From Asterella californica (taxonomy: Eukaryota; Streptophyta; Marchantiopsida; Marchantiales; Aytoniaceae): a stretch of 64,000 bases of DNA. The translations under genes and the position numbers were made by a program. The notes under the pieces were generated by a model. It saw only the letters and a list, made by a program, of their open reading frames with translations, was not told where the DNA came from and made no database searches. Every line of letters starts with the position of its first letter. Positions within the stretch are counted from its first letter, which is position 1. Positions 10,408 to 40,306 of this stretch are shown here, piece after piece. Location of the stretch: positions 37,571,501-37,635,500 of the forward strand of contig JAYKYS010000001.1 of NCBI GenBank assembly GCA_036924285.1. Reading direction: 5' to 3'.

Positions 10408-10743
10408 CCGAGTTGAACCCCCAGAAGCCGAGAATTGCTTCGGGAAGATTGTGTTGAGAAGACTGGAAGAAGTGACCTAGAAGCAAGACGTGTCTTCCCG
10501 AGCTTCCATGTAGATAAGTGTGTGATATTTTAGGTGGTAGTTGTTTGTTTAGGTCCAGAGCACGTTCTGAAGGATCTAGAAGCCGTGTGGTTTTGTGAGA
10601 AGACGAGATTTCTAGGTAAAGCCCGTGTGTTTGTGTGTTTGAACGAATCTTAGAACTTAGAATAGTGTTACTTGTGCAAATCTTTTGTGAGAACGATATC
10701 TTGTATACTAAATGGGCAAAAGAAGAAATCCTGCGTCACTACA
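10375..10743 (+). repeat. Remnant of the 5' LTR of element B
   Basis: The last 370 bases of the family-1 LTR, ending CTGCGTCACTACA. The same end occurs at 33,569, after which the sequences differ (an internal region here, foreign DNA there). This defines the LTR boundary from within the window. Confidence 0.85.
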
Positions 10744-22208: not shown

Positions 22209-23126
22209 TGTAAACCCTCCGCGGTCCTAACGATCAACTACCCCCCGATCTCTCAACCTCCACGATCGTCGTCATCCACGAATCTGCAACTGTCGGGCCT
22301 GTCTCTCACTCAGGGGTCACCTCTGATGGCTTTGATGGAAGCACACCATGAATCTTGAAGGGAAAAATGCTAAGTTCACTCTCATTCATACACCCACAAA
22401 CTTATCAACTAAAATCTCCATAATCTCATCCACTAAAATCCTCCATTCTAACGACGTCTCTCAAGTTCTCACATGCTAAAAATATCCCACACTCTCTATA
22501 TTACTCAAGTTGTCATTACGACGATGTGAAAACAAGGATGAGGAGCTCTTCTCTACTCCTCTATTTATACATTCTAGGTTTTTACTTTAGTACCCTCGGT
22601 AACTCAGCCGTAACTACTTTTACCGGGTTTTACTAAGATATTACTTAAGGTAAAAGCATTGATCACATGGGCTTTTTACCTTTTCACATGGGCTTATTCC
22701 TTCAAAGTCAACAACTTCTAGAAGGATTCTGGAATATTCTCAAGGAATCTCGAATTTCCACCCCCCCTCTACACTAGGACCCACTAAAAAGGAAACATGT
22801 GGAATCTCTTCTTGTTTTTAATGCCCACAAAGTCCACAACTTTAATCCAACCACTAATATCAAGTCAAAAAGGAGATAAGAGATACTTTCCACCTCCTTT
22901 CTACCTTTTAGACAAGATGACAAGATAGTAGTGCTCACTCTTTAGCAAATATCTGAATTCTGCCAAAAGTACAGCTAAGTTTAACCATAACTAACTTTTA
23001 GCTAGTCATGACTAACTTGATACCTCCTAAAAGTACTTTGGCAGCAAATAAACATTCTCAACCCTTAGTTATAACTAAACACCTTACTAATTGACAAACT
23101 TCCTATGTGTAACATAGGTCGTTACA
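22209..23126 (-). repeat. 3' LTR of element E
   Basis: 918 bases, TG..CA ends. It is the downstream LTR because integrase ends just inside it, with a polypurine tract at its inner edge. On the minus strand it carries TATAAATAG at 22,569-22,561. Confidence 0.95.
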
Positions 23127-23138
23127 TTTTACCCCCGG
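23127..23138 (-). other. Polypurine tract of element E
   Basis: On the minus strand CCGGGGGTAAAA directly precedes the 3' LTR. This is the expected position for the primer of plus-strand DNA synthesis and confirms the element's direction. Confidence 0.8.
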
Positions 23139-23139
23139 A

Positions 23140-24597
23140 CTAAATTTTCGCTCCGTCCTCGGAGTGAAGAGAGAACTTTCGTTGATGAAACAACTTCAAC
23201 TTGTCATGATTTACCCGATCGAATCTCCTTCCTCCCAGCTCCTGAAGGTCATATGTGAAGTTGCTCCACACCTTATCTACAACAAAAGGACCAAAATATC
23301 TCGGAAGAAACTTCTTCCTAGCCCTCTTGAATCTGATAGCATCATACAACATAACCCAATCTCCGACTTGAAAAGGTTTTACCTCCCTCTTGCCCAACCT
23401 TTTGTCGTAACTCTTCTTTTGATACGCTTGAGCTCGTTCCATCCGGATCATTGCTACCGCTCGGGTCTCTTCCAACTCCATGAGTTGCTCCCTTCTTGAT
23501 CTGACCACGTCTTCTCCTCTCGACCTCTTCAACTTTCGTTGAATAGTTTGAAAAGTATCCAATTCGAATTGGATGGGCAACTTGGACTCCACTCCATAAA
23601 CCAGTCGAAATGGAGAGTACCCAGTAGAAGTCTTTGTTGTCGTTCGGTACTCCCATAAGATGGCATGTAGCCTCTTATCCCAAGTATGTTTCGCAGTCTC
23701 AACACCAGCATCTTTGGCGAGCATCATACAAAGTGTAAGATTGGTCTTCTCCGCAAGACCATTAGCATTTGGCTTGTATGAGGTCGTTACTCGTGCCTTG
23801 ATAGAAAAGTGTTGTAGCATAGCAGTAGTCATGCTCCCTACAAACTCTCCTCCTCTATCCGAGACCAACTCTAACGGACATCCAAATCTGGTGATGATCC
23901 TCTCCCATAAGAATCTACCGACTTCTGTCTCATTGGTCTCTCTCAAAGGTCTAGCCTCTACCCACTTGGTACAATAGTCAGTGGCGACTACAATGTATCT
24001 ATTTCCTCGAGGTGTCTTATTGAGAGGACCTACAAAGTCAATACCCCACTTCTCAAATGGTCCTAATATTGGAATTGATCTTAACGGAGGTGTTCTAGTA
24101 GACTTCAGAGCAAATGCTTGACATACATCGCAAGTTTTGCAATAGTCTAAACACTCCTTGAAAATCCCTCTCCATTGATAACCCGCATCCAAAATCTTGA
24201 AAGCTGTTATCTTACCAGCAAAGTGACCTCCGCAAACAGTGCCATCGTGAAACTCGTGCATCAGCTTGAACGCCTCCTTCTGACCAACTGCTCTCCTTAG
24301 TAAGCCATCTGCTCCTTGATGAAATAGAATTCCCTCCACCATGGTGTAAGGTTTGCATCTCTTGATCAACGCGTTACGTTCTCGGGTATGCATACCTTCT
24401 GGAAAAGAGCCATCTGTAAGGAAACTCCAGATTTCCTTGTACTCGTCCGGTATCTCCTCAATGCTTGTGATGGTCATCAGATGCTCGTCTGGAAATGAAT
24501 CATCAAACGGTTCTTCTCCCTCATCATCATAAGCCCTCGACAAAAGATCAGCATTCGCATGCTTTTTCCCTGGTCTATCTTCGATCACGTAATCGTA
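23140..24597 (-). CDS. Integrase region of element E Pol
   Basis: This frame is in the same phase as the preceding 1,142-codon frame and separated from it only by TAA at 24,600-24,598; the next codons read 'YDYVIEDRPGKKHANAD', typical of the RNase H-integrase link. Counting from the codon at 24,588, the zinc-binding HHCC residues are about H114, H122, C153 and C156 ('FHDGTVCGGHFAG', 'CKTCDVCQ'). The catalytic triad is D184 ('GIDFVGP'), D244 ('LVSDRGGEF') and E280, with the canonical 35 residues between the last two. A C-terminal DNA-binding region ('KFLPRYFGPFVVDKV') follows. It joins element DNA to the genome. It has no ATG of its own, so it needs readthrough or is silent. Confidence 0.9.
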   Translation of the reverse strand, partial: YDYVIEDRPGKKHANADLLSRAYDDEGEEPFDDSFPDEHLMTITSIEEIPDEYKEIWSFLTDGSFPEGMHTRERNALIKRCKPYTMVEGILFHQGADGLLRRAVGQKEAFKLMHEFHDGTVCGGHFAGKITAFKILDAGYQWRGIFKECLDYCKTCDVCQAFALKSTRTPPLRSIPILGPFEKWGIDFVGPLNKTPRGNRYIVVATDYCTKWVEARPLRETNETEVGRFLWERIITRFGCPLELVSDRGGEFVGSMTTAMLQHFSIKARVTTSYKPNANGLAEKTNLTLCMMLAKDAGVETAKHTWDKRLHAILWEYRTTTKTSTGYSPFRLVYGVESKLPIQFELDTFQTIQRKLKRSRGEDVVRSRREQLMELEETRAVAMIRMERAQAYQKKSYDKRLGKREVKPFQVGDWVMLYDAIRFKRARKKFLPRYFGPFVVDKVWSNFTYDLQELGGRRFDRVNHDKLKLFHQRKFSLHSEDGAKI

Positions 24598-27500
24598 TTA
24601 TGTTAGAAGGATCTTCCAACGAGCAATACGACCTTCGGCATTAGGCTTATTAAAGATATACTTTAAAGCCTTGTGATCTGTGACTATGGAAAATTTCCCT
24701 CCTAGCAAGTAGTGTCGAAATTTCTTCAATCCAAAGATCACCGCTAATCCTTCTCGTTCAGTCACGGAGTAATTCTTCTCCGCTGGAACCATCTGCCTAC
24801 TAGCATAAGCTATAGGATGATCATGCCCATCTCCATCTAACTGACTTAATGTACATCCGATTGCTACATTGGAGACATCCGTATACAGAATAAATGTTTT
24901 ACTCCACTCAGGTTTAGCAAGTATAGGAGCTGTCACTAATGCCTTTTTCAGCTCCTCAAATGCTTCCTTTGCCTTCTGATCATGCACTATCAAGTCAAAA
25001 TCAACTCCCTTCTTCATGTACATAGTCAAAGCTATTGCTTTGTTTGAGAAGGAAAAGACAAACCTACGATAATATCCAACCATGCCAAGAAACTGCCTCA
25101 ACTTTGTCAAGTTGATCGGAAATGGAAGATCCACAATCTTCTTCACCTTCTCAGGATCTACCGCAATCCCATTCTTGGAAATGATGTGCCCTAACAGCAG
25201 ACCTTCTTCGCAGCCAAAGATGCACTTCTCTGGATTTAGAGAAGCGTTGGCTTGCTCCAACCGCTGCAAAACTTTGATCACATGATCAAAGTGGTCCTCC
25301 TTTCGTCCGTACACACAGAAATCGTCAATGAAATCCCGAACAAACTTCCCTATGAATGGTTCAAACACCTTGTTCATGAACCTTTGAAACGTGGCCGGAG
25401 CATTACACAATCCGAATGGCATCACCCGAAATGCAAATGTTCCCCAAGGAGTAGTGAAAGTAGTCAACTGTTGGTACTCCTGTGCTATCTTGATCTGGTT
25501 ATACCCACTATAACCATCACCAAAGCTGTACCATTCATGACCAGCAACTTCCTCCAAAATCTCATCTATAAATGGTAGAGGATAATAATCCTTCTTGGTA
25601 ACTGCATTCAACTTCTTATAGTCTATGCACACTCGCAGCTTACCATTCTTCTTCTTGACAATCACAATGGGTGAAACCCATTCTGAGTTCTCCACCTCAT
25701 AGATGAAACTCGCCTCCTTCAACTTGTCTATCTCCTCCTTAACCATCATTGCCGTTGTAGGATTGACTCTTCTCTGCTTCTGTCGAACTGGTCTTGCGTT
25801 CTCCTCCAATTCGATCCGATGAGTCTCTAGAGTCACCTCCTTCAAATCCTTGTAGCTGAAAGCAAACACATGGATATATTTTCGAAATATATCTAGGAAT
25901 CTACTTTTCTCCTCTTGAGTGACATTGATACCAAACTTCAGGATAGAGAGTCTTCTCATAATCTCTGCCTCACTCAACTCTTTTTTGTCTGGATCTTTCT
26001 CCACTGCTGGTCGAGGCAACAAGTCAATAGCACTAAGCTGATGTAATGATTCATCTCGACCAAATCCTTCGTCCTCAGACGAGGATTCTTGATCGTAAGA
26101 ATCTCCGGTATCTACTTCTGAGACACTCTGATCGTCCTCCGTATCAGATTCCCAGTAGTCACTAGTGGGTCTATCAGAGTCAGAAGTCACAACTCCAACA
26201 CCCGAGAGAGGTACTATCACTCTATGATCTCTAGGCCCAATCCGTAAGTATCCCTTGTGCCACCTATCAGTGGTGCGCACAGCTCTCAACCAAGGCCTAC
26301 CTAGGAGCAAATCATAACTAGAGTCCTTTAACACTTGAAAGGACATCAATGTTTGAACTCCCATCACAGACACGACTACCTTCTCTAACACACCAAGAGG
26401 TCTTACCCGTTGCTTGTTAGCCATCCCCACGACAATGCTAGCCGGGCGAGTTGGTTCCATCCCCAACTTCTTCATCAACCTCTCCGATATGGCGTTGACA
26501 GCTGACCCTCCATCCACCAATACGTCAGAGACGTAGTGACCATTCAACCGGACTTCAATCTTTGAAGCCCTAGTGCATACCTCTGAAGCATGCACATCCA
26601 CCACACCAACTCCCACAGACTTCGATGTCTTGCTCTTGGGTTTCTTCTTCTTGCTTCTCTTAGAACTCAGTCCTCCTCTGAGTTCCCTTCGTAAGCTGGG
26701 ATTAAGTGCGATCAGTTGTCCAACAGTGATGTTGGCTTTCTGAGCACCCACATCTTCAACCACATCATATCCCGCTTGGGAAGATGAAATGGTGAAATCC
26801 GCCATCCCCAACTTCCTTCTTGGCTCCCTTGGTGTACTCGAGACATTACTCGAACGAGTACTTCTACTTGCTGACTCCTCCATGAAAACCGGTTCATCAA
26901 AAAATCGAGTTCTTTTCCTTTCTTGGGCTAAAAGCTCCACCGGTGCATGAGAAGAGTTTGAACTTTCTCCTTTCTCGTAGATGGGATCTCGCACTACATC
27001 GATAGTAGCCACTCCCTTGTCTCGTCCTTGTGATGGATTTCCTCCACCCACATTCATTCTGACAGCTTCGGCACCTCTTGCTCCGTTGTTAGGACAATTT
27101 CGCTGAAAATGAGAACCTCCACACGTCCAACAAGTGATTCCTCCAAAGTTACCTTGGTTGCCTCCAAAGTTACCTTGATTTCCTCGGTTGGGATTGTTGT
27201 CGTAACCTCTTTGACCTCCTCCTCCACCTTTGTTCCTCCATTCTCGTAACTGTACCACGTTTATCTTGAGATCCGCAAGAGTGTCAGTGATGCTCTTCAG
27301 CTCGGCATGAAAATCAGAGGTGGCAGTAGACATCGTTGTTGGGACAAACGGTCTTGGCACCACCGTTGGAGTAGGAGCTGACGTTGAAGCAATCACCAAT
27401 TGTGATGGTGCAGGTGCGATCGTTGTGGCTACACCAGGAGTCGGAGTTGACACCAGAGCAGCATGATGAGGTTGGATGATATCTCCTTCATCCAAACTCT

Positions 27501-28026
27501 CTTCCATATTTGTCGCTATCTTGATGGCCTCCGCTTTGGTTGCTGGCTTCTCGTACCTCACTTGGGTTCGAATTGAAGGTCTCAACCCTCCCACCAAGTT
27601 CTTGGTCAGCACTGCTCCAATCCCCGCCATCGTTAGTTCCACATTGTCTCCACTCTTCCGTAGGACCGTCCGAAACCGTTGCTCCAACTTATCCACCCTT
27701 TCGGCATATTGCCGAACTTTCTCGTCGTCACGTTGCTTCAAATGAGTAAGCTCCACCATGAGCTTCTCATAACTCTCTTCTGGAAGAAATTCTTCGATGA
27801 GTGCATTACTCAACGTCTCCCATGTGTCCTCAACTGCACCAGGTGTCTGGCTCTTCACTCGGTCTTCATACCACGTAAGAGCAAAATCTTCTAAAAACTC
27901 TGGCAGTAACAACACCCATTCTTCCTTCCTTCTCACGTTGTTTCCGATGCAACCTCTTTTGAAGTCTCGAACAAATGGTTCTACATCTTCATTGTCCTTC
28001 CCATGAAACACGGGTAGCTTTCCCAT
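24598..28026 (-). CDS. Gag-protease-reverse transcriptase-RNase H polyprotein of element E
   Basis: The frame of 1,142 codons starts at ATG 28,026. Gag capsid occupies about residues 1-180. A zinc knuckle at 299-311 ('CWTCGGSHFQRNC') has spacing CX2CX3HX4C, one residue shorter than usual. The protease active site is 'LVDGGSAVN' (D505 region). Reverse transcriptase spans about 745-985 with 'SFGDGYSGYNQ' (D837) and 'FIDDFCVYG' (D901-D902). RNase H begins near 1,040 with 'ILYTDVSNVAIG' (D1050). The protein ends 'RIARWKILLT' followed by TAA. An intact relative would run on into integrase, so the stop is probably a single C-to-T change in a Gln codon; programmed readthrough is possible but unproven. 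The product would form particles and copy the element. Confidence 0.92.
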   Translation of the reverse strand: MGKLPVFHGKDNEDVEPFVRDFKRGCIGNNVRRKEEWVLLLPEFLEDFALTWYEDRVKSQTPGAVEDTWETLSNALIEEFLPEESYEKLMVELTHLKQRDDEKVRQYAERVDKLEQRFRTVLRKSGDNVELTMAGIGAVLTKNLVGGLRPSIRTQVRYEKPATKAEAIKIATNMEESLDEGDIIQPHHAALVSTPTPGVATTIAPAPSQLVIASTSAPTPTVVPRPFVPTTMSTATSDFHAELKSITDTLADLKINVVQLREWRNKGGGGGQRGYDNNPNRGNQGNFGGNQGNFGGITCWTCGGSHFQRNCPNNGARGAEAVRMNVGGGNPSQGRDKGVATIDVVRDPIYEKGESSNSSHAPVELLAQERKRTRFFDEPVFMEESASRSTRSSNVSSTPREPRRKLGMADFTISSSQAGYDVVEDVGAQKANITVGQLIALNPSLRRELRGGLSSKRSKKKKPKSKTSKSVGVGVVDVHASEVCTRASKIEVRLNGHYVSDVLVDGGSAVNAISERLMKKLGMEPTRPASIVVGMANKQRVRPLGVLEKVVVSVMGVQTLMSFQVLKDSSYDLLLGRPWLRAVRTTDRWHKGYLRIGPRDHRVIVPLSGVGVVTSDSDRPTSDYWESDTEDDQSVSEVDTGDSYDQESSSEDEGFGRDESLHQLSAIDLLPRPAVEKDPDKKELSEAEIMRRLSILKFGINVTQEEKSRFLDIFRKYIHVFAFSYKDLKEVTLETHRIELEENARPVRQKQRRVNPTTAMMVKEEIDKLKEASFIYEVENSEWVSPIVIVKKKNGKLRVCIDYKKLNAVTKKDYYPLPFIDEILEEVAGHEWYSFGDGYSGYNQIKIAQEYQQLTTFTTPWGTFAFRVMPFGLCNAPATFQRFMNKVFEPFIGKFVRDFIDDFCVYGRKEDHFDHVIKVLQRLEQANASLNPEKCIFGCEEGLLLGHIISKNGIAVDPEKVKKIVDLPFPINLTKLRQFLGMVGYYRRFVFSFSNKAIALTMYMKKGVDFDLIVHDQKAKEAFEELKKALVTAPILAKPEWSKTFILYTDVSNVAIGCTLSQLDGDGHDHPIAYASRQMVPAEKNYSVTEREGLAVIFGLKKFRHYLLGGKFSIVTDHKALKYIFNKPNAEGRIARWKILLT

Positions 28027-28239
28027 CTTGTAACTACTCTTTCTACTCTTCTAATCGTCGTGCAATAACTACTCGCTAAAAGAGTACGAACATCACCAAT
28101 TCCATTCGCGAATAATCTACCATAGGTAAAATGAAAGGAAATGGTTGTAACAACACCTCTTGTGCCATCTCTTCTCCCAAGGTAATCATGAGTCTGAGTT
28201 GCATCACCGCCTTCTCCACCATCCGAATGACGATCTCCA

Positions 28240-28731
28240 TCACAACTCAGCCGAGTCCTCCTTTGAAGTCGACAACTTCTCCGTCTCAGCTCTTTGAGTC
28301 TCGTCCAACTTCTCGACTATGGATGTAAGTAGGGCGGCCACATCGACGCACTTGTGTCCTCTTGATAGATCACCCACTCCACAACTTGGACAAGGATCTT
28401 CGCCTAGAAGATGAATTGGCGCTGGTGACGATGGACTCACTCGAAGACTCAAATCAGTAAACTCCCGCTTCCTTTTAGCTCTCTCGGTTCTGATTCTAGT
28501 TGGACAATTCACTACTTTATGTCCCAACCCTCTACAGAAATAACACCACAAGTCGGTTTCTACTCTTCTCCTCGGAGATTCTACTTGAGGTTTAGTACTA
28601 GGGTTTTCAAACTCGACGATAATCTCTCTCGAACTTTCTCCGACACTTACTATGACATCTAAACCTTGAGGAAGGTTTCTAAGTCTAACTTTCCAATCTT
28701 TTGAATTTCCACTCATGTTGCACCTTCTCAA
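28240..28731 (-). CDS. Leader frame 2 of element E with a zinc knuckle
   Basis: A frame of 163 codons lies between the primer binding site and gag. Residues 63-76 form a canonical CX2CX4HX4C knuckle ('CYFCRGLGHKVVNC'), followed by a basic stretch ('RIRTERAKRKREF') and a second Cys/His cluster ('CPSCGVGDLSRGHKC'). The knuckle suggests RNA or single-strand DNA binding. It is separate from the main gag, which has its own knuckle. It could be a split-off gag part, an exon spliced to gag, or an accessory protein. Its start codon is uncertain: ATGs exist at the first and sixth residues. Confidence 0.6.
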   Translation of the reverse strand: MRRCNMSGNSKDWKVRLRNLPQGLDVIVSVGESSREIIVEFENPSTKPQVESPRRRVETDLWCYFCRGLGHKVVNCPTRIRTERAKRKREFTDLSLRVSPSSPAPIHLLGEDPCPSCGVGDLSRGHKCVDVAALLTSIVEKLDETQRAETEKLSTSKEDSAEL

Positions 28732-28854
28732 CCATTAAGTGGACAAAATATCACAGAGGAAAATAATTCTACATCACTTTCTTAACTCTTCCGAGCTTTA
28801 TATTGGAAATCGTGTATTATACATGATATACACGAAATAAAATCCAGTCTAAAA

Positions 28855-29172
28855 TTAACTATCGAAGATATGATCCTCCTCACCCTCGTTTGTACTCATC
28901 ACTACAGACATCTTGAACTCACTCTTGTAAGGATCCAACTCTATTTCACCAGGAGCATTCGTGGCCTCCATAGTGAATGATGCTTTAAACTCGACTTTCT
29001 TCAAATCTGTGCCAATGGTCGCGAAAGCTTCTTCGTATAGGGTAAAGAGAGCACCCCAAGTGCTATAGATGCGTGTTCGTAACTCATCTATACTTAACTT
29101 GGGCTTCTCCGTCTCTGTTCGAACTCCTAAACGTCTCTTCTTCCACCTCGTCATTCGAACTGGATTCCCCAT
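28855..29172 (-). CDS. Leader frame 1 of element E, unknown
   Basis: A frame of 105 codons upstream of leader frame 2, beginning 'MGNPVRMTRWKKRRLG' (basic) and continuing 'LRTRIYSTWGALFTLYEEA'. I do not recognise it. It has no transmembrane or zinc motif. It lies 123 bases upstream of leader frame 2 and about 890 bases inside the LTR. It may be an N-terminal part of a spliced gag; the evidence for expression is only the open frame in a young element. Confidence 0.4.
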   Translation of the reverse strand: MGNPVRMTRWKKRRLGVRTETEKPKLSIDELRTRIYSTWGALFTLYEEAFATIGTDLKKVEFKASFTMEATNAPGEIELDPYKSEFKMSVVMSTNEGEEDHIFDS

Positions 29173-29319
29173 GACGTATCTTCAAGACCTCCTTGTATGC
29201 CGAAACGTATATCTCTTAGTTGGTAAGAGATCTCTCCAAGATTTTTGTGGTCTGCAGTAGCTCAACCTCCAAGCTACTAAATCATGAAGTTTCAACAGAA
29301 ACTTCCCTAATCAGAAGAG

Positions 29320-29765
29320 ATGGTGATGACTGTACAAATTTTCAGAGAACTGAAATTTGTATATTTTCACTTCCCTCGTGGTTGTCAACCCCCTCCACTT
29401 TGAAAAATCCTTTCTCCCTCTTCAGACCTCATCTTCTCATGATTTCTTTTGTCCTGGATAGCTTATCAGCCACTCTAAAACACTGGAAAGTTTCTCAGGA
29501 AAATAAAATTCACAGAAAATCTGGCACTGACTGTAAACTTTTTCCAGAGAACAGAATTCCTCAACTCTCACGAATAGACCCCCTCAACTTTGAAAAATCA
29601 TTGCTCCCTCTCTAGACCACCTTTTCCTATGATTTCTTTTGTCTTAGATAGGTTATCAGCCAATCTAAAACACTGGAAAGTTTCACAGGAAAATAAAATT
29701 CACAGAAAAGTTGACAGCGACTGTACAAATTTTCCAGAGAGCAGAATTTCTAAACTCACAAATTT
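29320..29765. repeat. Tandem repeat of about 190 bp in the leader of element E
   Basis: CTTTGAAAAATC recurs at about 29,398 and 29,588, and the 'AACACTGGAAAGTTTC..GGAAAATAAAATTCACAG' part is repeated in full, giving two complete units and part of a third. The units differ by about 10 percent, far more than the LTRs, so the repeat existed before this insertion. Confidence 0.8.
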
Positions 29766-30037
29766 CTCTCCTCTAATAACTTTTCTCTCCTCCTTTCTCT
29801 ACAACTCTTGTTGCACCTTCTTTCAACTCTCCTCAAACCCTTTCTAAGTGAACAAGATGTAAAGAATGACTTCGAACGCGTCATATATCACTACGGGATA
29901 CACGAAAGGTTCTAACGTTGCTAACATCGCGTTAGCTCTCTCTCCTCCCAACGTTCTCTCCATGTGCTCTCTCATAATCTCCTTTTGTCGAATATAGAAC
30001 TGAACTCTAAACATCGTTCAACGATCCCTTCAAGTGA

Positions 30038-30056
30038 GGTCCCGGCAACGGAACCA
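30038..30056 (-). other. Primer binding site of element E
   Basis: On the minus strand TGGTTCCGTTGCCGGGACC lies four bases inside the 5' LTR. It resembles the site of element A but differs in positions 4-6; the matching tRNA is not assigned. Confidence 0.75.
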
Positions 30057-30060
30057 TAAA

Positions 30061-30978
30061 TGTAAACCCTCCGCGGTCCTAACGATCAACTACCCCCCGA
30101 TCTCTCAACCTCCACGATCGTCGTCATCCACGAATCTGCAACTGTCGGGCCTGTCTCTCACTCAGGGGTCACCTCTGATGGCTTTGATGGAAGCACACCA
30201 TGAATCTTGAAGGGAAAAATGCTAAGTTCACTCTCATTCATACACCCACAAACTTATCAACTAAAATCTCCATAATCTCATCCACTAAAATCCTCCATTC
30301 TAACGACGTCTCTCAAGTTCTCACATGCTAAAAATATCCCACACTCTCTATATTACTCAAGTTGTCATTACGACGATGTGAAAACAAGGATGAGGAGCTC
30401 TTCTCTACTCCTCTATTTATACATTCTAGGTTTTTACTTTAGTACCCTCGGTAACTCAGCCGTAACTACTTTTACCGGGTTTTACTAAGATATTACTTAA
30501 GGTAAAAGCATTGATCACATGGGCTTTTTACCTTTTCACATGGGCTTATTCCTTCAAAGTCAACAACTTCTAGAAGGATTCTGGAATATTCTCAAGGAAT
30601 CTCGAATTTCCACCCCCCCTCTACACTAGGACCCACTAAAAAGGAAACATGTGGAATCTCTTCTTGTTTTTAATGCCCACAAAGTCCACAACTTTAATCC
30701 AACCACTAATATCAAGTCAAAAAGGAGATAAGAGATACTTTCCACCTCCTTTCTACCTTTTAGACAAGATGACAAGATAGTAGTGCTCACTCTTTAGCAA
30801 ATATCTGAATTCTGCCAAAAGTACAGCTAAGTTTAACCATAACTAACTTTTAGCTAGTCATGACTAACTTGATACCTCCTAAAAGTACTTTGGCAGCAAA
30901 TAAACATTCTCAACCCTTAGTTATAACTAAACACCTTACTAATTGACAAACTTCCTATGTGTAACATAGGTCGTTACA
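30061..30978 (-). repeat. 5' LTR of element E
   Basis: 918 bases, apparently identical to the LTR at 22,209-23,126. It is next to the primer binding site, so it is the promoter-bearing copy. Confidence 0.95.
30413..30421 (-). promoter_or_regulatory. TATA box in the 5' LTR of element E
   Basis: TATAAATAG on the minus strand, about 560 bases from the outer LTR end. It matches the plant TATA consensus and would place transcription start near 30,385, leaving about 320 bases of R-U5. Confidence 0.65.
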
Positions 30979-31540
30979 GAACGGAGTCTCATGAATCTTA
31001 AGCCGCTGTTTGGGTTCTCGGAGCTGTCAGGTACTACCGCCGTTGGTGCTATGTTGAGATCTGAGTAGTGCCTTGAAGCATGCATGCTGTACCTTGCTAG
31101 AATGCTTGGTAGACCAAGGTGTACAGCAAGTTGTATCGATACTCTATCAAGTTGATTGAGTGATCTTATAGCATCTTCTGGTTGTACTATGAAGTTGTGA
31201 TAGTTGGATTGATGGGCAGTTAGCGTCGTTGGGGAGCTATTCAGAAGTCATGCTTCCAATGATATAGAGGAATAATTCCAATTAGATAGTATAGAGTTGA
31301 GTATTTTTAGTTAGAATACAAAAAATCTGTTTGTAACACAAGTTTATGCAACCTATACGTAACCTTGGATCGTAGCAAGCTTTAAACTTGAGCCGAGCGG
31401 ATACAAGGTCACTCGGGCTAGAAGAGTAGATAGTGAAACATTTGAGTGGAAACATCCTGATCTAGATCCAACCTTGTCAATCCACATACCTCTGCACAGC
31501 CATATATCCAATGTATTCCTAGACAGAAAAACACGTTATA

Positions 31541-32540
31541 CGATACCGTGGGAAGGGATCTTCCATCCCGGAAGATGAGAAGAGTAGCGTCTTCTCGTGC
31601 GCAGAAGCAGAAGACCACAGTGGTGGAAGAGGCATCCTTGCCTCTGGAAGACAAGGAAGACACCTCCGATCATATTGTGGAGATGAACCTGTCTTCCACG
31701 AGAAGAAGGTTGGAGGAGTTCAGCGCCTTCTTCCATTCGGAGATTCAACCAGCTATGGAGTTGGTGGAAAAGCGCACGATGGCTCAGGAGAAGCCACTGC
31801 GACTTGAATTCGGTCTGCGCACCTTGATGCAGCAGGAAGAAGTCCAAAAGAAGGTGGAAGCACTAGAAGCCAACCTCCGCACCACGGAAAAGCTCGCAGT
31901 GAAGTACAAGACGGAAACAGCCGCTTCTGTCAAGGAGTCATCACAGTTGAGAAAGAGCAACCAAGAGTTGCAGGCACGTCTACAGCAACGTGACCAAGAG
32001 GTTCTGCGGGTCAGAGGTAAGATCACCACCCTCGCAGAGGAAAAGATAACGTGGAAGACACTTCGGGAAGCCGCACAAGCATAGGCTGCAGTAGAGAAGA
32101 CGCAGCGAGAAGCAGCAAAAGCTCGCACGCAAGGATTGCTAGCACAGACGGTGGAAGCACTTCGTAAGAAGTTCAACTTCATCGCTGGTAGGAAGCTTCT
32201 CACCCTAGCTAGGGAGTGGGACGACGAGTCCAGAGCGATGCTAGTGGAGTGCAAGGAGAATATGTTTCATTATCTAGATCGGCAGATTGAGGGTGTGAAG
32301 ACGTTTTATGGTCTTCCTTCGATTCCACCACCAGCGACGGCATCTTCCCAAGCTCCAGGATCAACGATCGAGACATATTTGGAGAAGGAGGAGTTCGACC
32401 TCGCTGTCCACTTGGTAGTGACAACGTTGGAAGCCGGGAAGATTGCAGAAGAAGCCCCGGAAGACAAGGTGTCTTCTGGAAGACACGAAGACGAGTTGTC
32501 TTTCCAAGTGTTTCGAGTGGAGGAAGTGACTTCCGCTTCT
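31541..32540 (+). pseudogene. LTR-internal frame, copy 3, 3' part
   Basis: The coiled-coil part is well kept: 31,548-32,084 is open, TAG interrupts at 32,082-32,084, and the same phase reopens to 32,540. It covers the basic stretch ('SRKMRRVASSRAQK'), the coiled coil and 'LDRQIEGVKTFYGLPS'. The acidic C-terminus is lost where the inverted segment begins. It is about 80 percent identical in protein to copies 1 and 2, so it is an older relative; conservation is strongest over the coiled coil and the 'KKFNFIAGRKLLTLAREW' region. Confidence 0.8.
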
Positions 32541-33255
32541 GGGGGTTCAACTCGGCCTCTCACACCTCCAGAAGACTGCTCCTGCTTCGTAGAAGTCGAA
32601 CTAGTAACGTCTGTCGCACATTGCTCTTCCAATTCCCAACGGGTTAGATCAATCACATGATGTATGCTCCCTGTAGCCTTCCCAAGCTTCTGCTGACAAA
32701 AACGGTCTTCCTGCAGCACTATAACGACATTCACTTTCACTGAAGCTCAATAGAAGTCTCGCAAGCTCACTAGAAGAAGATAGAAAGATGAGAAGATGAG
32801 AGAAGATGAGGAAGAAGAGAAAATCCAAACAAGAAAAAACAAGATGAAAATGAGAAATTAAGACTCCGACAGACTTCTAGTCCGGATCCTGACTAACAAG
32901 CCATCCCTGCTTTGTAGTAATTTGATTCCCTGCCTTGGTTAGTCATCTACTTTGCTACTCCTGCGCTGCCTACTCTGCCACATGGGTAGTCCTCTAAAAT
33001 TACATAGAAACTGTCACCTCTTAAGATAGCAAATTTGGTTCTTACTAAGTTTAGACAAGTCAACTTGTCTTCTGTGCTTGTTGTCTATTCTAATTGCTCG
33101 GATGCGATCTCTTCCGGATCTGCTCCTACCTGAACTCCTAACTCGGCTTTTGATATGGTGGGAAGCCCGGCGAAAATATCTCGGGTGTCACTGAGGTAGC
33201 TTCCTCCTCAACATTCGTGGTTGGCTCAGCTGGTGCAGCTTCAGAAGACGCTTCC
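32541..33255 (-). other. Inverted segment within the 3' LTR of element B
   Basis: These bases run parallel to plus 4,010-4,400 and then 6,540-6,850 of the minus-oriented LTR of A, although the LTR parts on both sides run in plus direction. The flanks (rear of the coiled-coil frame on the left, LTR end on the right) are what lie outside this interval in an intact LTR, so this is an in-place inversion. Confidence 0.75.
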
Positions 33256-33569
33256 GAGAATTGCTTCGAGAAGACTGTGTTGAGAAGACTGGAAGAAGTG
33301 ATCTGGAAGCAGGACGTGTCTTCTCGAGCTTCCCTATAGATAAGTGTGTGATATTTTAGGTGGCAGTTGTTTGTTTAGGTCCAGAGCACCTTCTGAAGGG
33401 TCTGGAAGCCGTGTGGTTTTGTGAGAAGATGAGATTTCTAGGTAAAGCCCGTGTGTTTGTGTGTTTGAACGAATCTTAGAACTTAGAACAGTGTTACTTG
33501 TGCAAATCCTCTGTGAGAACGATATCTTGTATACTAAATGGGCAAAAGGAGAAATCCTGCGTCACTACA

Positions 33570-34032: not shown

Positions 34033-35532
34033 GAAGGATTTCTCCTTTTGCCCATTTAGTATACAAGATATCGTTCCCACATAGGATTTGCACAAGTAAC
34101 GCTGCTCTAAGTTCTAAGATCTGTTCAAACACACAACCACACGGGTTTTGCCTAGAAATCCCGTCTTCTCACAAAACCACACAAAACAACACGTCTTCCA
34201 AACACGCCAAATGGTGCTCTGGATCCAAACAAACAACTACCAATTACAATATCACACAACTATTCACAGAGAAGCTCGGGAAGACGAACTTCCTGCTTCC
34301 AGGTTACTTCTTCCGGTCTTCTCGATACCGTCTTCCCGAAGCGATTCTCGTCTTCTGGGGGTTTAGCTCGTCTTCTCACACCTCCAGAAGGTTGTCCGGC
34401 TTCGCAGAAGTCGACTAGTAACAGTCGTTACACCTTATTCTCACACTCACATTCCATCGGGTTGGATAAATCATAGGGTGTATGCCCCCTGTAGCCTTCC
34501 CAGGCTTCTGCCTACGGAAGTTGTCTTCCTGCAGCGCTACAACGACATTCACCTTCACGGAAGCTCAATAGAAGTATCGGAAGCTCACTAGAAGAAGGTA
34601 AGAAGATGGGGAAGATGAGGGAAGATGGGAAGAAGAAGAAATCCAAACAAGAGAAAACAAGATGAAAAAGGGCAATTAAGATTCCGACAGGCTTCTAGTC
34701 CGGATCCTGACTAACAAGCCATCCCTGCTTGTAATAGTTTGGGGAGGAAGACAACAAACGTGAGTACTGTAGCACCGTCTTCTACTCGAGGATGTCGTCT
34801 TCTGTTGCGGGAAGAAGGCTTCTTTCTTCTTCACTTCGCTGCTCTGACTGCTCTGTCTTCTGGGATCCCTTACCCAGAAGACCGTTCGTACGTAGATCCC
34901 AAGTGCTCTACTGAACGAGTCAAGCTACACTCCACAACTGTTGACATTCACCGCCACTCAAGAAGAACACTTCCCATGCACAATTGGGAGCGAATTCAAT
35001 ACATTCCACCACCCAGAAGACATGGACAAAGCGTCTGCACTCAAATCAACAATCTTTTCCCCGAGAAGAAGTCACAATGGCATTGGGAAGCTCACTCCCT
35101 CTACTTCCTGCGTCTACTCCTCGACACACCAGTCTAATCAGCAGGTCTGCACGAGGATGCCGTTCCCTGTTCCTAGACTGTCCCTGCTCTAATGTGTCTC
35201 TCCTGCCTGCCTGTAGAATCGGTGTGTATGTTCAGTTACTGCCGAATTCTACAGACCTGGCAGAGCTCTCAGAGAGATTTTCTCCTACCATGCTATCCTA
35301 CTTAACCATCTGCCTTGGGAGGCGACCACCAGGGAGAGAGAGAGAGGCGCTGACAAGAGGTTGTCACCTCACATGCATGCGGTCCCTCTTCCCAATTAGC
35401 CCTCCACTGTATTACTCCTACGCTACCTATGCTGCCACATGGGGTCCTAACTATTTTTACATGGAAAACTGCCACCCTTAAGATAGCATGTCCAATCCTA
35501 CTAAATCTGAAAGTGTCGATTAAGTTTGCTAA

Positions 35533-37563
35533 CTACTCTGATTGCTCGGTGGCAATCTCCACATGATCTGCTCCTACCGGAGCTACTACCTCGACTTCTG
35601 ATGGGCTGGGAAGCCCTGCACTTACCTCGGGTACCACTGAGGTAGCTTCCCTCTCCTCGCTCTTCGCTGGCCCTGCTATTTCTGCGGCTGCGTCTTCCTC
35701 GGTTTCAACTTCGGAAGATGGAATGGTCTTCTGGGAAGACGAGTCGAACGGTGCGTCTTCGGTCTTCTGAGGCACAGATGCAGTACTAGGGACCATGGCG
35801 ATCTCATAGGGGTCCGAGGAAGTCGCTTCCTCCACGCGGAATATCTGGGAAGTCGGCTCGTCTTCCTGTCTTCCAGAAGACATCATGTCTTCCGGGGCGT
35901 CTTCTGGAGTTTTCTCGTCTTCCAACGCTGTCACCACCAAGTGTACAGCGAGATCGAACTCCTCCTTCTCCATTCCGGATCCAGTCGAGGGTGCTGGGGC
36001 TTGGGAAGATGCGGTTGCAGGTGTCGGAAGTGAGGGAAGACCATAAAGTGTCTTCACTCCTTCTATCTGTCTATCCAGGTACCTGAACATGCTATCTCTG
36101 CATTCCACCAACCTCGTCTTGGACTCGCTGTCCCATTCCCTAGCTAAGGTAAGTAACTTCTTACCCGCGGTGAAGTTGAACTTCTTCCGAAGCGCTTCTA
36201 CCGATTGAGCTAGCATCTTCTGCGCACGGGCCTCCGCTGCTTCCCTCTGTGTCTTCTCTGTTGCAGCTCGCGCTTCTGCGGCTTCTCGCTGCATCTTCCA
36301 AGTGGTCTGCTCTTTTGCAAGGGCAGTGATCTTCTCCCGTACTCGGAGAACTTCCTGATCACGCTGCTGTACTCGCGTCTGCAACTCCTGGTTGCTCTTC
36401 CGAAGTTGCATCGACTCCTTGGCAGAAGCGGCTGCTTCCGCCTTGTACCTGGCTGCAAGCTTCTCCGTGGTGCGGAGACTAGCTTCCAGAGACTCCGTCT
36501 TCTGCTGGCTGTCTTCTTGTCGCAGCAAGGTGCGCAGGCCGAATCCAGGCTGTAAAGGCTTCTCCTGTGCCCTCGCTCTTCTTTCCAGCAACTCCATAGC
36601 GGGCTGGATCTCCTTCTGGAAGTAGGCACTAAACTCCTCCAGTCGTCTTCCTGCAGAAGACAAGTTCATCCCCACCACTCGCTCGATGGTATCGACTTCG
36701 TCTTCCAGAGGCAAGGGAGCCTCTTCCACCACTACGGCCTTCATCTTCTGCGCACGAGAAGAAGCTACTCTTCTCATCTTCCGGGGTGGAAGACTCCTCG
36801 TGGCAGGAGCGGCTCTCCTCTTTGCGCTTCCTCGCATCGCAGTAGGAGTGCCCATCCATCCTTCGTCTTCTGGAGTCTTCGGAAGACTCCCAGGTGTTAC
36901 AGAAGCTGTCTTCTGCTCCGATCGGGTACTCAGCAAGTCTTCCTCCGAGTCCGACTCCGATCCTGAATGGATGAGGGAGATGGGTGTCCTCGGTACACTT
37001 CTGTGACCCATCTTCCTCACTGGCGTGGCGTCTTCCGACCCACTAGACTCGTCTTCCCTCACCAGAAGCGTCTTCTGGTGAGAGCCGGGTCTCAGCTGTG
37101 GCATCAGAGTGGGAGGGGGCGTTGCTGCTGCCTCTCGGTCATCGTCTTCCGAGGTCTCCTCCTTCACCTCCTGTCGCCCCGTTGGCCCATACACTGCCAG
37201 CTGATCTTCCCTAAGATCCCCCATGGCTACATACAAGTAGCAGAAGAAGGACGTCAGATGTCCTCCCGCCGGGGTACCCAAGTATGCTAGCTCCGTCTGT
37301 ACATAGTTGTGGATGTACGCGCCCCAATAGATTGGCACTCTGTCATCCCACACTGATTCCAGGAACTCCACGTCCTGATCTCCTAAGTACCTCGTCTTCT
37401 GCGCTTTTCCCTTGGGGAAAAGATGCAGAAACAACTTCGCCAGAAGTCGCTTCTTCGGCTCCCGGTAAGATTCTATCTTCCAACCGTTCCTCCCCTGTCT
37501 GTCTTCCACGAAAAGGCAGGTGGTACTCCCAGGCACATGCCATGAACTCACAATCCTAGGCAA
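35533..37563 (-). CDS. LTR-internal coiled-coil protein, copy 2 (676 aa)
   Basis: Layout is as in copy 1: N-terminal globular part, acidic region, basic bipartite stretch at 248-265, coiled coil at about 350-460, acidic tail. By hand I count 13 base differences from copy 1 over 2,031 bases, 7 silent and 6 changing a residue. The upstream extension from ATG 37,845 is open except for TGA at 37,629-37,627 (codon 73), where copy 1 has Trp. So each copy lacks a different part of an ancestral frame of about 770 codons. The stretch has no partner gene here because the rest of the element is gone. Function is unknown; nuclear or particle scaffolding would fit the basic stretch and coiled coil, but this is inference. 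Confidence 0.7.
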   Translation of the reverse strand: MPRIVSSWHVPGSTTCLFVEDRQGRNGWKIESYREPKKRLLAKLFLHLFPKGKAQKTRYLGDQDVEFLESVWDDRVPIYWGAYIHNYVQTELAYLGTPAGGHLTSFFCYLYVAMGDLREDQLAVYGPTGRQEVKEETSEDDDREAAATPPPTLMPQLRPGSHQKTLLVREDESSGSEDATPVRKMGHRSVPRTPISLIHSGSESDSEEDLLSTRSEQKTASVTPGSLPKTPEDEGWMGTPTAMRGSAKRRAAPATRSLPPRKMRRVASSRAQKMKAVVVEEAPLPLEDEVDTIERVVGMNLSSAGRRLEEFSAYFQKEIQPAMELLERRARAQEKPLQPGFGLRTLLRQEDSQQKTESLEASLRTTEKLAARYKAEAAASAKESMQLRKSNQELQTRVQQRDQEVLRVREKITALAKEQTTWKMQREAAEARAATEKTQREAAEARAQKMLAQSVEALRKKFNFTAGKKLLTLAREWDSESKTRLVECRDSMFRYLDRQIEGVKTLYGLPSLPTPATASSQAPAPSTGSGMEKEEFDLAVHLVVTALEDEKTPEDAPEDMMSSGRQEDEPTSQIFRVEEATSSDPYEIAMVPSTASVPQKTEDAPFDSSSQKTIPSSEVETEEDAAAEIAGPAKSEEREATSVVPEVSAGLPSPSEVEVVAPVGADHVEIATEQSE

Positions 37564-38753
37564 GATCTTCTTCTCGTACCAATATCCCCGGTTCTCGGTC
37601 TCAGGCCTGTGAAACGCCTTACGCCATCAGTCTTCTGTCCAGGAAGATGGTCTTCCCTGAGCAACTCCTGCCTTCGCAGGTACACGGTTACGCGGTGGTA
37701 ACGCGGCCCATACCTCCTCCAGAAGCCCTTGATCTACGAGGTTCCTGTTCCACAGGAAGAAGTCGAGACCCAACTCCTTGAGGAAAGGAGTGGCCTCGGC
37801 CAATTCTGTCGCTGGTAACACCAAGCCTCGCGGATGCATCGACATACCTGGAAGATCTATTGCACTAAACCACAAGCACCTACTATGAGCTGAAGGCTCA
37901 GTCCTTCCCGAGTGCCCACAGTCTAGCTTCCACTCTCAGAAGACGAAACTAGTCTTCCAGAAGACAGCTACTCCGTCTTCCGGGATTCTAACAGTACTTC
38001 CTAGATAGCTCTCGTCTTCCGAGCTATATCTAAACAATCCTATCTAAGCAAGGCCTCGCATGGATTACCAAGAAGACAACCCACCTTGCATTACATCCTA
38101 CTTCCTATCAGAAGATACAAGATATGCGAGAAGTAGAGTATGAGAAAGGTTCAGAAGATGGTTGCGGGCTCCTGCGGTGACAGTGGCCTTTGGGAAGACA
38201 CTTGGGACAGCTTCCGATTCAATGTCTTTCTCGGAAGACTTCCCGAAGTCAGACTTCTCGAAGTCAGACTTCCCTTCACTGGTCTCGCTTGTCTTTCGTC
38301 TTCCTACGCGCAGTCTATCCTCACAACAGACTCAAAACATGTGCACTCTGTTCTTCTGACTTCTCACCTCTCATACGCACTCAGAAGAAGTTTGCTGCAT
38401 GATGGGAAGACATGACCCTCGACCATTCTCTCAGGATTCTGCCAGCAATACTTCTCACAACTCTCTTCTAAGTTCGGGAAGAAGAAGGAACGGCTGCTAT
38501 GGGTCGGACAGAAGAGACCCGAAATGGACCCTCACGTCTTCTCGCTCATTTTGCCAGCCTTTCAGTCTTCTAGTCTCTCTAGGAAGATGTGGAGTTGAGA
38601 AGCTTGGAAGACCGGGAGGCGCAGGCCTAGTTTCCGAGTTCCAACTTCTCGAAATAACACAACAACTCACCACACCACTCAGGCTTCGTATCAAGTCTCT
38701 CTAAACACAAAAGCAAAGCAAATCCACTCTTGATACGAATTGTGTTCAGTCGA

Positions 38754-38807
38754 CTTCCGAAGACAGTCTTCCGAAGATGTCTTCCGAAGATGTCTTCCGA
38801 AGACAGT
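38754..38807. repeat. 13-14 bp minisatellite, four units
   Basis: Same repeat as at 9,878-9,918 with one more 13-base unit. Confidence 0.8.
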
Positions 38808-40042
38808 CAAGTTCAAGAAGCGTCTTCCGAGGATGTTCCCATCTTCCGAATCGTCTTCTATTTCAAGTTTCGGGGGTAGAGAGGTAGTAGGGTAGAGAAA
38901 TTGATAGTTGGGTTCGCCAATTTGAAGACTAGGGGTAGGGAAGCTCGAATTGAGCTCGGGAAGAAGCAAGGAGATATCTTGACAGAAATTGGGCAGCGCT
39001 TCCGCGCCCAATGTCTCAATAGGAAAGATGGGGGGTGGGGTAATCGATCAGGCTGCCTGCACACAATCAAGGAAGCGCGGGGAGTACCAGGCAATGGCGA
39101 GAAGAAGTGGGAAGGGGAAAGAACAAGGGAAAGAACCTCTACAGTCTTCTTCGGCTCCCGAGTTACCTTCGACCTCCGTGCGCTTCTGGCTCTTGTACTA
39201 GCTTCCAATGCGACTCCGCTCGAATGCGCCTGCTGTCAATTTTGGTCCACACCTCGATTCTTCTTTCGCTTCTACTCGCCACTCTCCACTGTCAACTTCT
39301 CGGAAGCTCCACAGAAATGCCTTCGCTCTTTCTGCTGTTTGTGCTCCCGCAATCCGATTTCACCCTTCTCCTAGCTGCCAACGTACTCTCTACTACCTCG
39401 ATGTCTTACTCGATTCTTCTCTCAATGCTAGCTCGAAGTTCACTCTCTCAATCGATCTTCTTCAGGCGCACTGTGCTGCGGGAAGTTGGAAGGTGGCTAA
39501 TGTGCTTCCTCACGCATCTTCCCCGCAGATTAGGGGTTATATTGGCTGGAGAAAATGTTGTCTCGTGTATGTTAACACCTTCAACTCCACATCTTCTTCT
39601 GACCTTGGTGTACAAAATTCCTCAATTTCTAATCTTCAATTGATCATTACTTCTATTTGCGCAGACACTAAAGCAAGCTCATCACCAAGGAATATCAGAC
39701 GAGTGTGCAGTTGCTGAGAAGCTATAGGTTGCTAGGCAGACTAGAAATCAAGTTCATGGTAGGCTAGGTGAGAGCTGACGGATAAGGCTGTGAGGTATTG
39801 GATCGATGTAAGGTTTAGCTAGGAAAGTGCAGAAGCAAATGTGGACATTTACTACGACCTAGATACACTAGTTTCAGACACAAATGATCTGATTGTGCAC
39901 CTTCTATATAGTGCAGGCTTTCACATCGGCTCCAAATTCATTCACAAGACGATGTCTTCCTGACCTACCTACCTATTCGGTGCACTCCAGTAGGTACACC
40001 TACTTGTTTACCCGAAAACTCGTGGTCAGGCCTTCGTGATCG

Positions 40043-40210
40043 CTGTCTTCCGGAAGACAGGTGTCTTCCGCCGTCTTCCCATCTTCCGCCGTCTTCCTAT
40101 CTTCTGAAGACGCAACTGAGAAGACGGTCTTCCGAAGACGGTCGTCTTCTGAAGAAGTCAACTTCTTATTACAAACAGCTCTTAAGATCATCTTCCTGTT
40201 AAGGAAGACG
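40043..40210. repeat. Cluster of GAAGAC/GTCTTC motifs near the LTR start
   Basis: Eleven GAAGAC or GTCTTC hexamers lie in about 170 bases, where about 0.1 would be expected by chance. The corresponding stretch of element B (17,455-17,560) has eight in about 110 bases. Many are paired as short palindromes such as TCTTCCGAAGA. Confidence 0.85.
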
Positions 40211-40306
40211 TAACCTTAAGTAACAACGCTTCTTCAGTTATATAAACAAGTCATTAATCTCAAAAATTTCAAAAATTCGTGAATACTGTAATTTGTGGGC
40301 ACCACA

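What the first reader, a model, noticed from the sequence alone, without database searches (positions are those of the whole stretch)
34033..40306. A gypsy family with a 6.3-kb LTR that carries its own long open frame
Seen: LTR ends TGTGGTGCCC..CACTACA are fixed by three contexts (next to a primer binding site in A, after pol in B, and flanked by D protease on both sides in the lone copy). The 676-codon frame lies upstream of gag in A and downstream of pol in B, so it is LTR-internal. Known: plant LTRs are usually 0.1-5 kb and rarely code; the mouse mammary tumour virus sag gene is a known case of an LTR-internal gene. Inferred: each insertion would carry two copies of the accessory gene, and solo LTRs would spread it as a single-gene cassette under its own LTR promoter.
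Basis: partly seen in the sequence, partly recalled or inferred. Interest (0 to 1): 0.9.

Follow-up and report, generated by a model that had tools for sequence, protein, structure and literature searches.

The report
Retrotransposon LTRs that carry a gene
A family of retrotransposons in this genome carries a 770-codon gene inside each of its two long terminal repeats, so that lone repeats left behind elsewhere still hold the gene, unbroken in four of the eight examined, and its protein likely helps the family by recognising a six-letter DNA word that fills the whole element.

Summary
The finding holds, also outside the window. Two full-length elements elsewhere in the genome have 5-bp target duplications and LTRs of 5,842/5,851 and 5,988/5,969 bp. 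The frame lies between TGTGGTGCCC and CACTACA in all four LTRs, unbroken in one; the stated refuter is not met. Of 20 further copies fetched, 8 are solo LTRs with a 5-bp duplication; 4 of those 8 have the frame unbroken.

The window's lone LTR lacks its terminal CACTACA and carries about 400 extra bp.

The frame is a real gene: dN/dS 0.19 between two diverged copies, against 0.22 for gag.

My mechanism, a nuclear protein that binds this word and protects the family from silencing, is inference. Two protein searches found no homologue; no expression or binding data were available.

The parts
34033..40306 (-). Lone LTR: 5' end TGTGGTGCCC at 40306; terminal CACTACA and target duplication missing at the 3' end; carries about 400 bp (LTR 355-768) absent from the five copies aligned
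35533..37845 (-). LTR-internal gene in the lone copy: 770 codons from ATG (37845) to TAG, one internal stop at codon 73
3681..10380 (-). Copy A: LTR of element G1, next to PBS and gag; lacks the first 1,042 bp; contains an insert at 4468-5946
6673..8985 (-). LTR-internal gene in copy A, 770 codons, one internal stop at codon 46
3644..3661 (-). Primer binding site of G1, TGGCGCCGCTGCCGGGGA, 19 nt after CACTACA (3681-3687)
   Evidence: same spacing in both full-length elements
1869..3296 (-). gag of G1 (PF03732, E 1.1e-9)
10386..10743 (+). Remnant (3' end) of the 5' LTR of element G2, joined head to head with copy A
11496..12644 (+). gag of G2 (PF03732, E 4.3e-10)
15394..16053 (+). RNase H part of pol of G2 (PF17919, E 5.3e-29)
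17312..33569 (+). Copy B: 3' LTR of G2, diverged subfamily, TGTGGTGCCC at 17312 to CACTACA at 33569, with 11.2 kb of insertions at 20367-31555 and inverted parts within about 32536-33204
19320..20366 (+). 5' half of the LTR gene in copy B (broken)
31556..32534 (+). 3' half of the LTR gene in copy B (broken); its last part is inverted at about 33088-33254

Best explanation
Each of the two full-length Ty3/gypsy elements examined carries, inside both of its 5.8-6.0-kb LTRs, a 770-codon accessory gene that sequence comparison shows to be under purifying selection, and its protein would likely act in the nucleus by recognising the word GAAGAC that saturates the whole element, which would keep copies of the family from being silenced. 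Shown: the position of the gene in both LTRs (unbroken in one of the four), unbroken genes in 4 of 8 solo LTRs, the selection, and the saturation and conservation of GAAGAC on both strands and in coding sequence. Inferred: that the LTR is a complete transcription unit; that the protein enters the nucleus (basic NLS-like stretch at residues 342-359) and pairs through its long helical segment; that it binds GAAGAC; and that binding counters silencing, as VANC proteins do for Arabidopsis VANDAL transposons. On this reading each insertion brings two gene copies and about 160 target words in its LTRs besides those in gag-pol, and a solo LTR keeps one gene copy and about 80 words.
For: Position: full-length elements C765 (target duplication CTTCC; LTRs 5,842/5,851 bp) and C313 (GACCT; 5,988/5,969 bp), PBS after each 5' LTR, purine-rich tract before each 3' LTR, frame region in all four LTRs. 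Solo LTRs: 8 of 20 fetched copies, 4 of 8 with the frame unbroken. Family size: 388 LTR-PBS junctions at up to 2 mismatches, 0 for the reversed control; 66 of 66 scored gene matches at 96-100% identity, out of 15,570 first-look candidates.
Selection: dN/dS 0.19 over 661 codons between lone and B, 1.06 and 1.63 in the other two frames; gag of G1 against G2 0.22 over 919 codons. Among 28 copies N/S is 1.54 for singletons and 0.63 for variants in three or more copies, neutral 2.2-3.1; internal stops: 19 in one copy, 3 in two copies, 0 in three or more.
Motif: 81 GAAGAC in the lone LTR against about 6.5 from dinucleotide shuffles or 13.8 from a trinucleotide model; top hexamer in each of four family segments and in the non-coding part of one of them, in none of five others; 33 against 12.5 (LTR gene) and 25 against 8.6 (gag) from synonymous-codon shuffles, above all 500 shuffles each, with 2 against 2.4 in the control element C; 51 of 74 sites kept between subfamilies against 27.3 expected, maximum 41 of 5,000; 73-85 sites in each of 16 LTRs counted.
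Protein: NLS-like stretch and 170-residue proline-free stretch; helix 448-568 with block means of pLDDT 82-92 over residues 471-530.
Against: Nothing ties the protein to GAAGAC except that both belong to the same element. There are no RNA, binding or methylation data. The protein has no homologue in two searches and no Pfam match above cut-off, and its N-terminal part folds only poorly (mean pLDDT 33.5; block means 28-51 for residues 1-240). [quoted passage not shown] Part of the excess in coding sequence is protein composition (12.5 of 33 in the LTR gene). Sense copies outnumber antisense 143 to 70 over the seven segments counted. Copies with stops do get inserted (one stop is shared by both LTRs of C313), so the gene need not act from the copy that moves. 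The 28 copies came from the 66 best-scoring matches, which favours intact frames. Only one other complete element in the window (C) served as a motif control.
Confidence: 0.38

Rival explanations
1. The LTR gene and the GAAGAC word are unrelated: the word is a binding site for a host factor (or for Gag or integrase), and the LTR protein does another job, such as assisting assembly or movement.
For: No test links protein and word; the word also fills gag-pol (7-10 per kb) and is not special to the LTR. The protein has no recognised DNA-binding domain.
Against: Saturation is confined to the family that has the gene, as far as seen: 22 sites in 32.5 kb of other window sequence and 15 in 14.7 kb of non-self flanks. 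But only one other complete element was at hand for comparison.
Confidence: 0.3
2. GAAGAC acts in RNA, as splicing-enhancer or packaging words along the genomic RNA, and the LTR protein is an RNA-binding export or packaging factor (as CERV is for Cer1 of C. elegans, search listing only, PMC10309623).
For: Sense copies outnumber antisense 143 to 70; GAAG-rich words are classical splicing enhancers (recalled). In the RNase H frame the antisense word is not above all shuffles (3 against 1.19, maximum 4).
Against: In the LTR gene and gag the antisense word GTCTTC exceeds all 500 synonymous-codon shuffles: 6 against 1.07 (maximum 5) and 8 against 1.83 (maximum 5), a larger factor than for the sense word; in non-coding LTR of the lone copy the two strands are 29 to 19. 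This points to double-stranded DNA.
Confidence: 0.18
3. The gene is an ordinary extra ORF of the kind that plant Ty3/gypsy elements carry between pol and the 3' LTR; it fell inside the LTR when the polypurine tract that sets the LTR start moved upstream of it, and it does whatever such ORFs do.
For: Extra ORFs between pol and the 3' LTR are the commonest kind in plants (PMC7264820, part 1 of 3 read). By the known mechanism of plus-strand priming, a tract upstream of the ORF is enough to put it into both LTRs. N-terminal domain plus long helix resembles such ORFs (recalled).
Against: No match to Transposase_28, plant mobile domain or Athila ORF-1 in the Pfam scans. No search was made for an old tract downstream of the frame. 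This explains the origin, not the function, so it can be true together with the main explanation.
Confidence: 0.14
4. The frame is internal, present once per element, beside a much shorter LTR, or is a chance open frame.
For: None found.
Against: Both full-length elements examined, with target duplications, have it in both LTRs; third-position excess and dN/dS of 0.19; ATG and final stop at the same place in 28 of 28 copies.
Confidence: 0.01

Closest known systems
Mouse mammary tumour virus sag (LTR-internal gene; recalled)
   Same: A gene inside the LTR, hence two copies per provirus and one per solo LTR
   Different: A mammalian retrovirus; sag is a membrane superantigen, whereas this is a predicted nuclear coiled-coil protein, longer (recalled size), in a Ty3/gypsy element
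Extra ORFs of plant LTR retrotransposons (Ogre, Retand, Athila, Retrosat2 ORF0; PMC6317226, PMC7264820, PMC3485330)
   Same: Accessory ORF of unknown function in a Ty3/gypsy element; long LTRs in some of them (over 3.2 kb in Retrosat2, up to about 5 kb in large non-chromoviruses)
   Different: In the parts read, those ORFs lie in the internal region, beside gag or between pol and the 3' LTR. None of the named domains was found here. The 2019 survey's LTR length limit was 6,000 bp (PMC6317226, passages), close to the length of these LTRs
VANDAL/VANC anti-silencing system of Arabidopsis (PMC5735166 passages, PMC10398659 abstract)
   Same: Accessory gene of a transposon, and a short word found many times in the same family
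   Different: DNA transposon, not a retrotransposon; [quoted passage not shown] here they are dispersed and also in coding sequence; binding not tested here

Membership tests
Ty3/gypsy LTR retrotransposon | gag with Retrotrans_gag domain; RT-linked RNase H domain | tested here: met
   PF03732 in gag of G1 and G2, PF17919/PF17917 in G2
Ty3/gypsy LTR retrotransposon | TG...CA LTR ends, 5-bp target duplication, PBS and purine tract next to LTRs | tested here: met
   C765 and C313; 8 solo LTRs with 5-bp duplications
OTA clade (Athila/Tat/Ogre/Retand) | Placement on an RT/RH/INT tree; extra RNase H for Tat | not tested
   No tree was built; PBS resembling the 3' end of tRNA-Asp, and long LTRs, are only suggestive (recalled)
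Known plant eORF families (Transposase_28, plant mobile domain, Athila ORF-1) | Match to the Pfam domain | tested here: not met
   Scans of the 676-codon frame (E up to 1) and of N-terminal and helical pieces (E up to 10); HMMER filters can drop weak matches
LTR-internal gene of the sag type | Frame inside both LTRs of full-length copies | tested here: met
   4 of 4 LTRs of 2 elements
LTR-internal gene of the sag type | Expressed from LTR-driven mRNA | not testable with these tools
   No RNA data held
VANC-type sequence-specific anti-silencing system | Short word accumulated in the element's own family | tested here: met
[quoted passage not shown]
   Dispersed, irregular spacing, also in all frames of gag and in the LTR gene
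VANC-type sequence-specific anti-silencing system | Protein binds the word and removes DNA methylation | not testable with these tools
   Needs binding and methylation assays
VANC-type sequence-specific anti-silencing system | Protein homologous to VANC | tested here: inconclusive
   No homologue of any kind at E<=0.001 among 7,994 candidates or at E<=1 among 1,768; VANC itself was not fetched or compared

The most novel reading that the evidence does not exclude
A retrotransposon whose LTR is itself a complete gene for a sequence-specific anti-silencing protein, and whose entire sequence, coding and non-coding, has been rewritten by selection into a dense array of that protein's GAAGAC target. 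Every insertion plants two gene copies and some 200 targets, and every solo LTR is a self-sufficient gene plus about 80 targets.
Probability: 0.28. Interest if true: 0.95.

Novelty: new variant of a known kind. Interest (0 to 1): 0.8.

Why it matters
LTRs are treated as regulatory ends. Here selection has kept a gene of 770 codons inside them, so recombination to a solo LTR, normally the death of an element, leaves a clean single-gene copy. The family also gives a direct test of how a transposon rewrites its own sequence around a short word: GAAGAC is kept beyond what the protein sequence requires in gag and in the LTR gene. If the LTR protein binds that word, sequence-specific anti-silencing would extend from DNA transposons to LTR retrotransposons.

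Tried and rejected
Short-LTR/internal-ORF reading: rejected by the full-length copies. Chance frame: rejected by codon statistics. Protein composition as the whole cause of GAAGAC: rejected by synonymous shuffles and by presence in all frames of gag. Insertion preference for GAAGAC-rich DNA: not supported outside the family; 21 non-self flanks have 1.02 per kb against 0.68 in the other window sequence. Rfam: 0 matches in the 64-kb window. Gene homologues in IMG/VR: 2 stretches matched a pattern, none was a relative. The gag search gave one distant relative (28% identity over 63%), not followed. Folding the N-terminal domain: mean pLDDT 33.5; no fold search was run on either model. The solo to full-length ratio for the whole genome was not obtained: of the junction and end counts only the LTR-PBS count was answered. 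The species was not identified; that it is a plant is inferred from the elements and from a gene with an acetyltransferase domain. Literature: ten searches, of which 53 was on VANC and 115 on the word GAAGAC. Among the titles and abstract beginnings listed I saw no plant LTR-internal gene, but most searches listed only a part of their matches (for example 20 of 212) and the library holds open-licence papers only. PMC7264820: part 1 of 3 read; PMC6317226, PMC3485330, PMC5735166 and PMC11963269: passages; PMC10398659: abstract and outline; others: search listing.
Full report
What is in the window. The window (contig C1:37571501-37635500 of an unnamed 516.7-Mb genome) is a nest of LTR retrotransposons. 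The sequence of the finding occurs three times. Copy A (3681-10380, minus) ends in CACTACA, 19 nt before a PBS, TGGCGCCGCTGCCGGGGA, followed by gag of element G1 (1869-3296; PF03732, E 1.1e-9). Copy B (17312-33569, plus) begins with TGTGGTGCCC after pol of element G2 (RNase H at 15394-16053) and ends in CACTACA; it is split by 11.2 kb of insertions. The lone copy (34033-40306, minus) sits inside a protease-like frame. So the frame is upstream of gag in one element and downstream of pol in another. No element of this family in the window has two complete LTRs: the 5' LTR of G2 is only 358 bp (10386-10743), joined head to head with copy A.

Test outside the window. A search of the own genome with the frame gave 15,570 first-look candidates, of which 66 were scored; all 66 match at 96-100% identity. 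I fetched two pairs lying about 12.6 kb apart. Element C765 has LTRs of 5,842 and 5,851 bp, both TGTGGTGCCC...CACTACA, target duplication CTTCC on both sides, a PBS after the first and a purine-rich tract before the second. Element C313 has 5,988 and 5,969 bp and GACCT. The frame region is present in all four LTRs. LTR pairs differ by 91 and 67 substitutions (and 11 and 51 gap columns). One of the four frames is unbroken (5' LTR of C765); the others have 1-3 internal stops.

Solo LTRs. Of 20 further loci (L014-L033; from the best-scoring of the 66), 8 are solo LTRs with perfect 5-bp duplications (CAGCA, CAAAG, CGACT, GTCTT, CCTAG, ATTGT, TCAAG, GTCTG), 5 are 5' LTRs, 3 are 3' LTRs, and 4 could not be decided. 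Four of the 8 solo LTRs have the frame without internal stop or frameshift. The genome holds 388 LTR-PBS junctions at up to 2 mismatches, with 0 for the reversed control pattern.

The gene. The third-position excess between lone and B begins at about the ATG at LTR 2462 (window 37845): 7/6/21 in LTR 2461-2680, but 5/6/4 in 2372-2460. It runs to the end of the colinear part at 4489: in all 125/96/252 changes at the three codon positions (p 1.1e-19), against 34/31/35 in LTR 1600-2371 (p 0.88). dN is 0.162, dS 0.862, ratio 0.19 over 661 codons; the other two frames give 1.06 and 1.63. Gag of G1 against G2, as a control, gives dN 0.071, dS 0.329, ratio 0.22 over 919 codons. The gene is 770 codons; its ATG and final TAG are at the same place in 28 of 28 copies, and 12 of 28 have neither internal stop nor frameshift. 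Across these copies N/S is 186/121 for singletons, 44/41 for variants in two copies, and 22/35 for variants in three or more, where neutrality predicts 2.2-3.1; internal stops are 19, 3 and 0. Two caveats: the copies were taken from the best-scoring matches, and A against lone alone (15 nonsynonymous, two of them stop changes, and 9 synonymous codon changes over the 800-codon open stretch) shows little constraint, as expected after insertion.

The protein. It has no Pfam match above cut-off (the best below it is MRG, E 0.016) and no homologue in 5.8 billion proteins in two searches. An unbroken copy shows an N-terminal part of about 210 residues, an acidic and serine-rich linker, a bipartite-NLS-like stretch KRRAAPATRSLPPRKMRR (342-359), and a 170-residue proline-free stretch (434-603); a simple heptad score (0.70) lay within the range of shuffled versions of the protein (mean maximum 0.52, highest 0.80), so that score does not prove a coiled coil. 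AlphaFold2 from the single sequence gives a helix over 448-568 with block means of pLDDT 82-92 over residues 471-530; most of the rest is below 70 (mean 45.1), and the N-terminal part alone gives 33.5. The nuclear and coiled-coil assignments are therefore predictions.

The word GAAGAC. Reading the LTR showed the word again and again. In the lone LTR there are 81 on both strands, against about 6.5 from dinucleotide shuffles; G1 internal 35 against 4.8, G2 internal 48 against 7.3, B pieces 56 against 6.3. Element C has 5 against 7.8, the insert 20367-22205 has 0 against 1.7, and 40307-64000 has 17 against 17.3. In all, 200 in 19.6 kb of family against 22 in 32.5 kb of other window sequence. It is the most over-represented hexamer in each of four family segments and in the non-coding part of the lone LTR taken alone (z 8.4-17.7 under a trinucleotide model); in five other segments other hexamers lead, at z up to 6.4. 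It occurs in all frames of gag. Synonymous-codon shuffles give 12.5 (maximum 19 of 500) against 33 in the LTR gene, 8.6 (maximum 15) against 25 in gag, 2.2 (maximum 6) against 7 in the RNase H frame, and 2.4 against 2 in element C. In the LTR gene and gag the antisense word exceeds all shuffles too, by a larger factor than the sense word; in the RNase H frame it does not (3 against 1.19, maximum 4). On the whole this speaks for double-stranded DNA. Of the 18 one-letter neighbours, GAAGAT, GAAGCC, GAAGTC and GAAGGC are 3.3-4.0 times and GAAGAA 2.9 times as dense as in other sequence; the other 13 are at 0.4-1.9 times. A or G precedes the word in 90% of 213 occurrences and G or A follows in 71%. 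Between subfamilies 51 of 74 sites are kept, against 27.3 (sd 4.0, maximum 41 of 5,000) for random hexamers in the same regions; hexamers of the same composition are kept in 152 of 385 cases. The 16 LTRs counted hold 73-85 each; L015, a seventeenth with both ends, shorter at 5,357 bp, was left out of that count. Flanks outside the family have 15 in 14.7 kb, so this is a property of the family and not of its sites.

Mechanism. I commit to a VANC-like reading: the LTR gene makes a nuclear protein that recognises GAAGAC and protects the family. VANC proteins of VANDAL transposons bind short words accumulated in their own family and remove silencing (PMC5735166 passages; PMC10398659 abstract). The differences are stated: those words are tandem and non-coding, these are dispersed and also in coding sequence, and no link between protein and word has been tested. 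Origin, as inference: an extra ORF between pol and the 3' LTR, the commonest kind in plants (PMC7264820, part 1 of 3 read), would enter both LTRs if the polypurine tract moved upstream of it, since that tract sets the LTR start.

Known or new. In the listings of the searches aimed at this question I saw no plant LTR-internal gene; most listings were partial and subscription papers are not covered. I file it as a new variant of a known kind: a Ty3/gypsy element with an LTR-internal gene and a family-wide DNA word.

Unexplained. dS of the LTR gene (0.86, lone against B) is 2.6 times that of gag (0.33, G1 against G2), while non-coding LTR 1600-2371 differs by only about 13%. Either the LTR gene was exchanged between lineages or the leader is under strong constraint.

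Noticed in passing
   Followed up: yes
G000:C1:37553165-37580203 (L004, L009, window copy A): Three gene-bearing LTRs about 12.5 kb apart on one strand; the middle one (L009) lacks its 5' end, follows RNase H-like sequence and is followed by another PBS: it looks like a tandem LTR-internal-LTR-internal-LTR arrangement.
   Followed up: partly
window 22206-30978: A different LTR retrotransposon (C) with 921-bp LTRs at 99.9% identity, flanked by GAAC on both sides, nested within the insertion that splits the LTR gene of copy B.
   Followed up: partly
window 32536-33204: In copy B the stretches corresponding to LTR 5566-5955 and 4657-4911 are inverted, and what lies between them is missing.
   Followed up: partly
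window 10375-10386: Head-to-head junction of copy A (G1) with the remnant of G2's 5' LTR; the mechanism is unclear.
   Followed up: no
window 4468-5946: 1.48-kb insert in copy A, absent from the lone copy; not identified.
   Followed up: no
L010/L011, L018, L021: Family members inserted into LTRs of their own family; two of these target duplications (CTTCC, GTCTT) overlap GTCTTC words.
   Followed up: partly
LTR 1600-2371 (lone) against copy B: Non-coding leader is far better conserved than synonymous sites of the adjacent gene, and the gene's dS is 2.6 times gag's.
   Followed up: partly
window 49735-50859: Frame with an acetyltransferase (GNAT) domain, E 3.4e-6, apparently a host gene (HOOKLESS1-like by recall).
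   Followed up: no
window 60313-60660 and 42268-42727: Tandem or near-tandem repeats (99% and about 90% identity).
   Followed up: no
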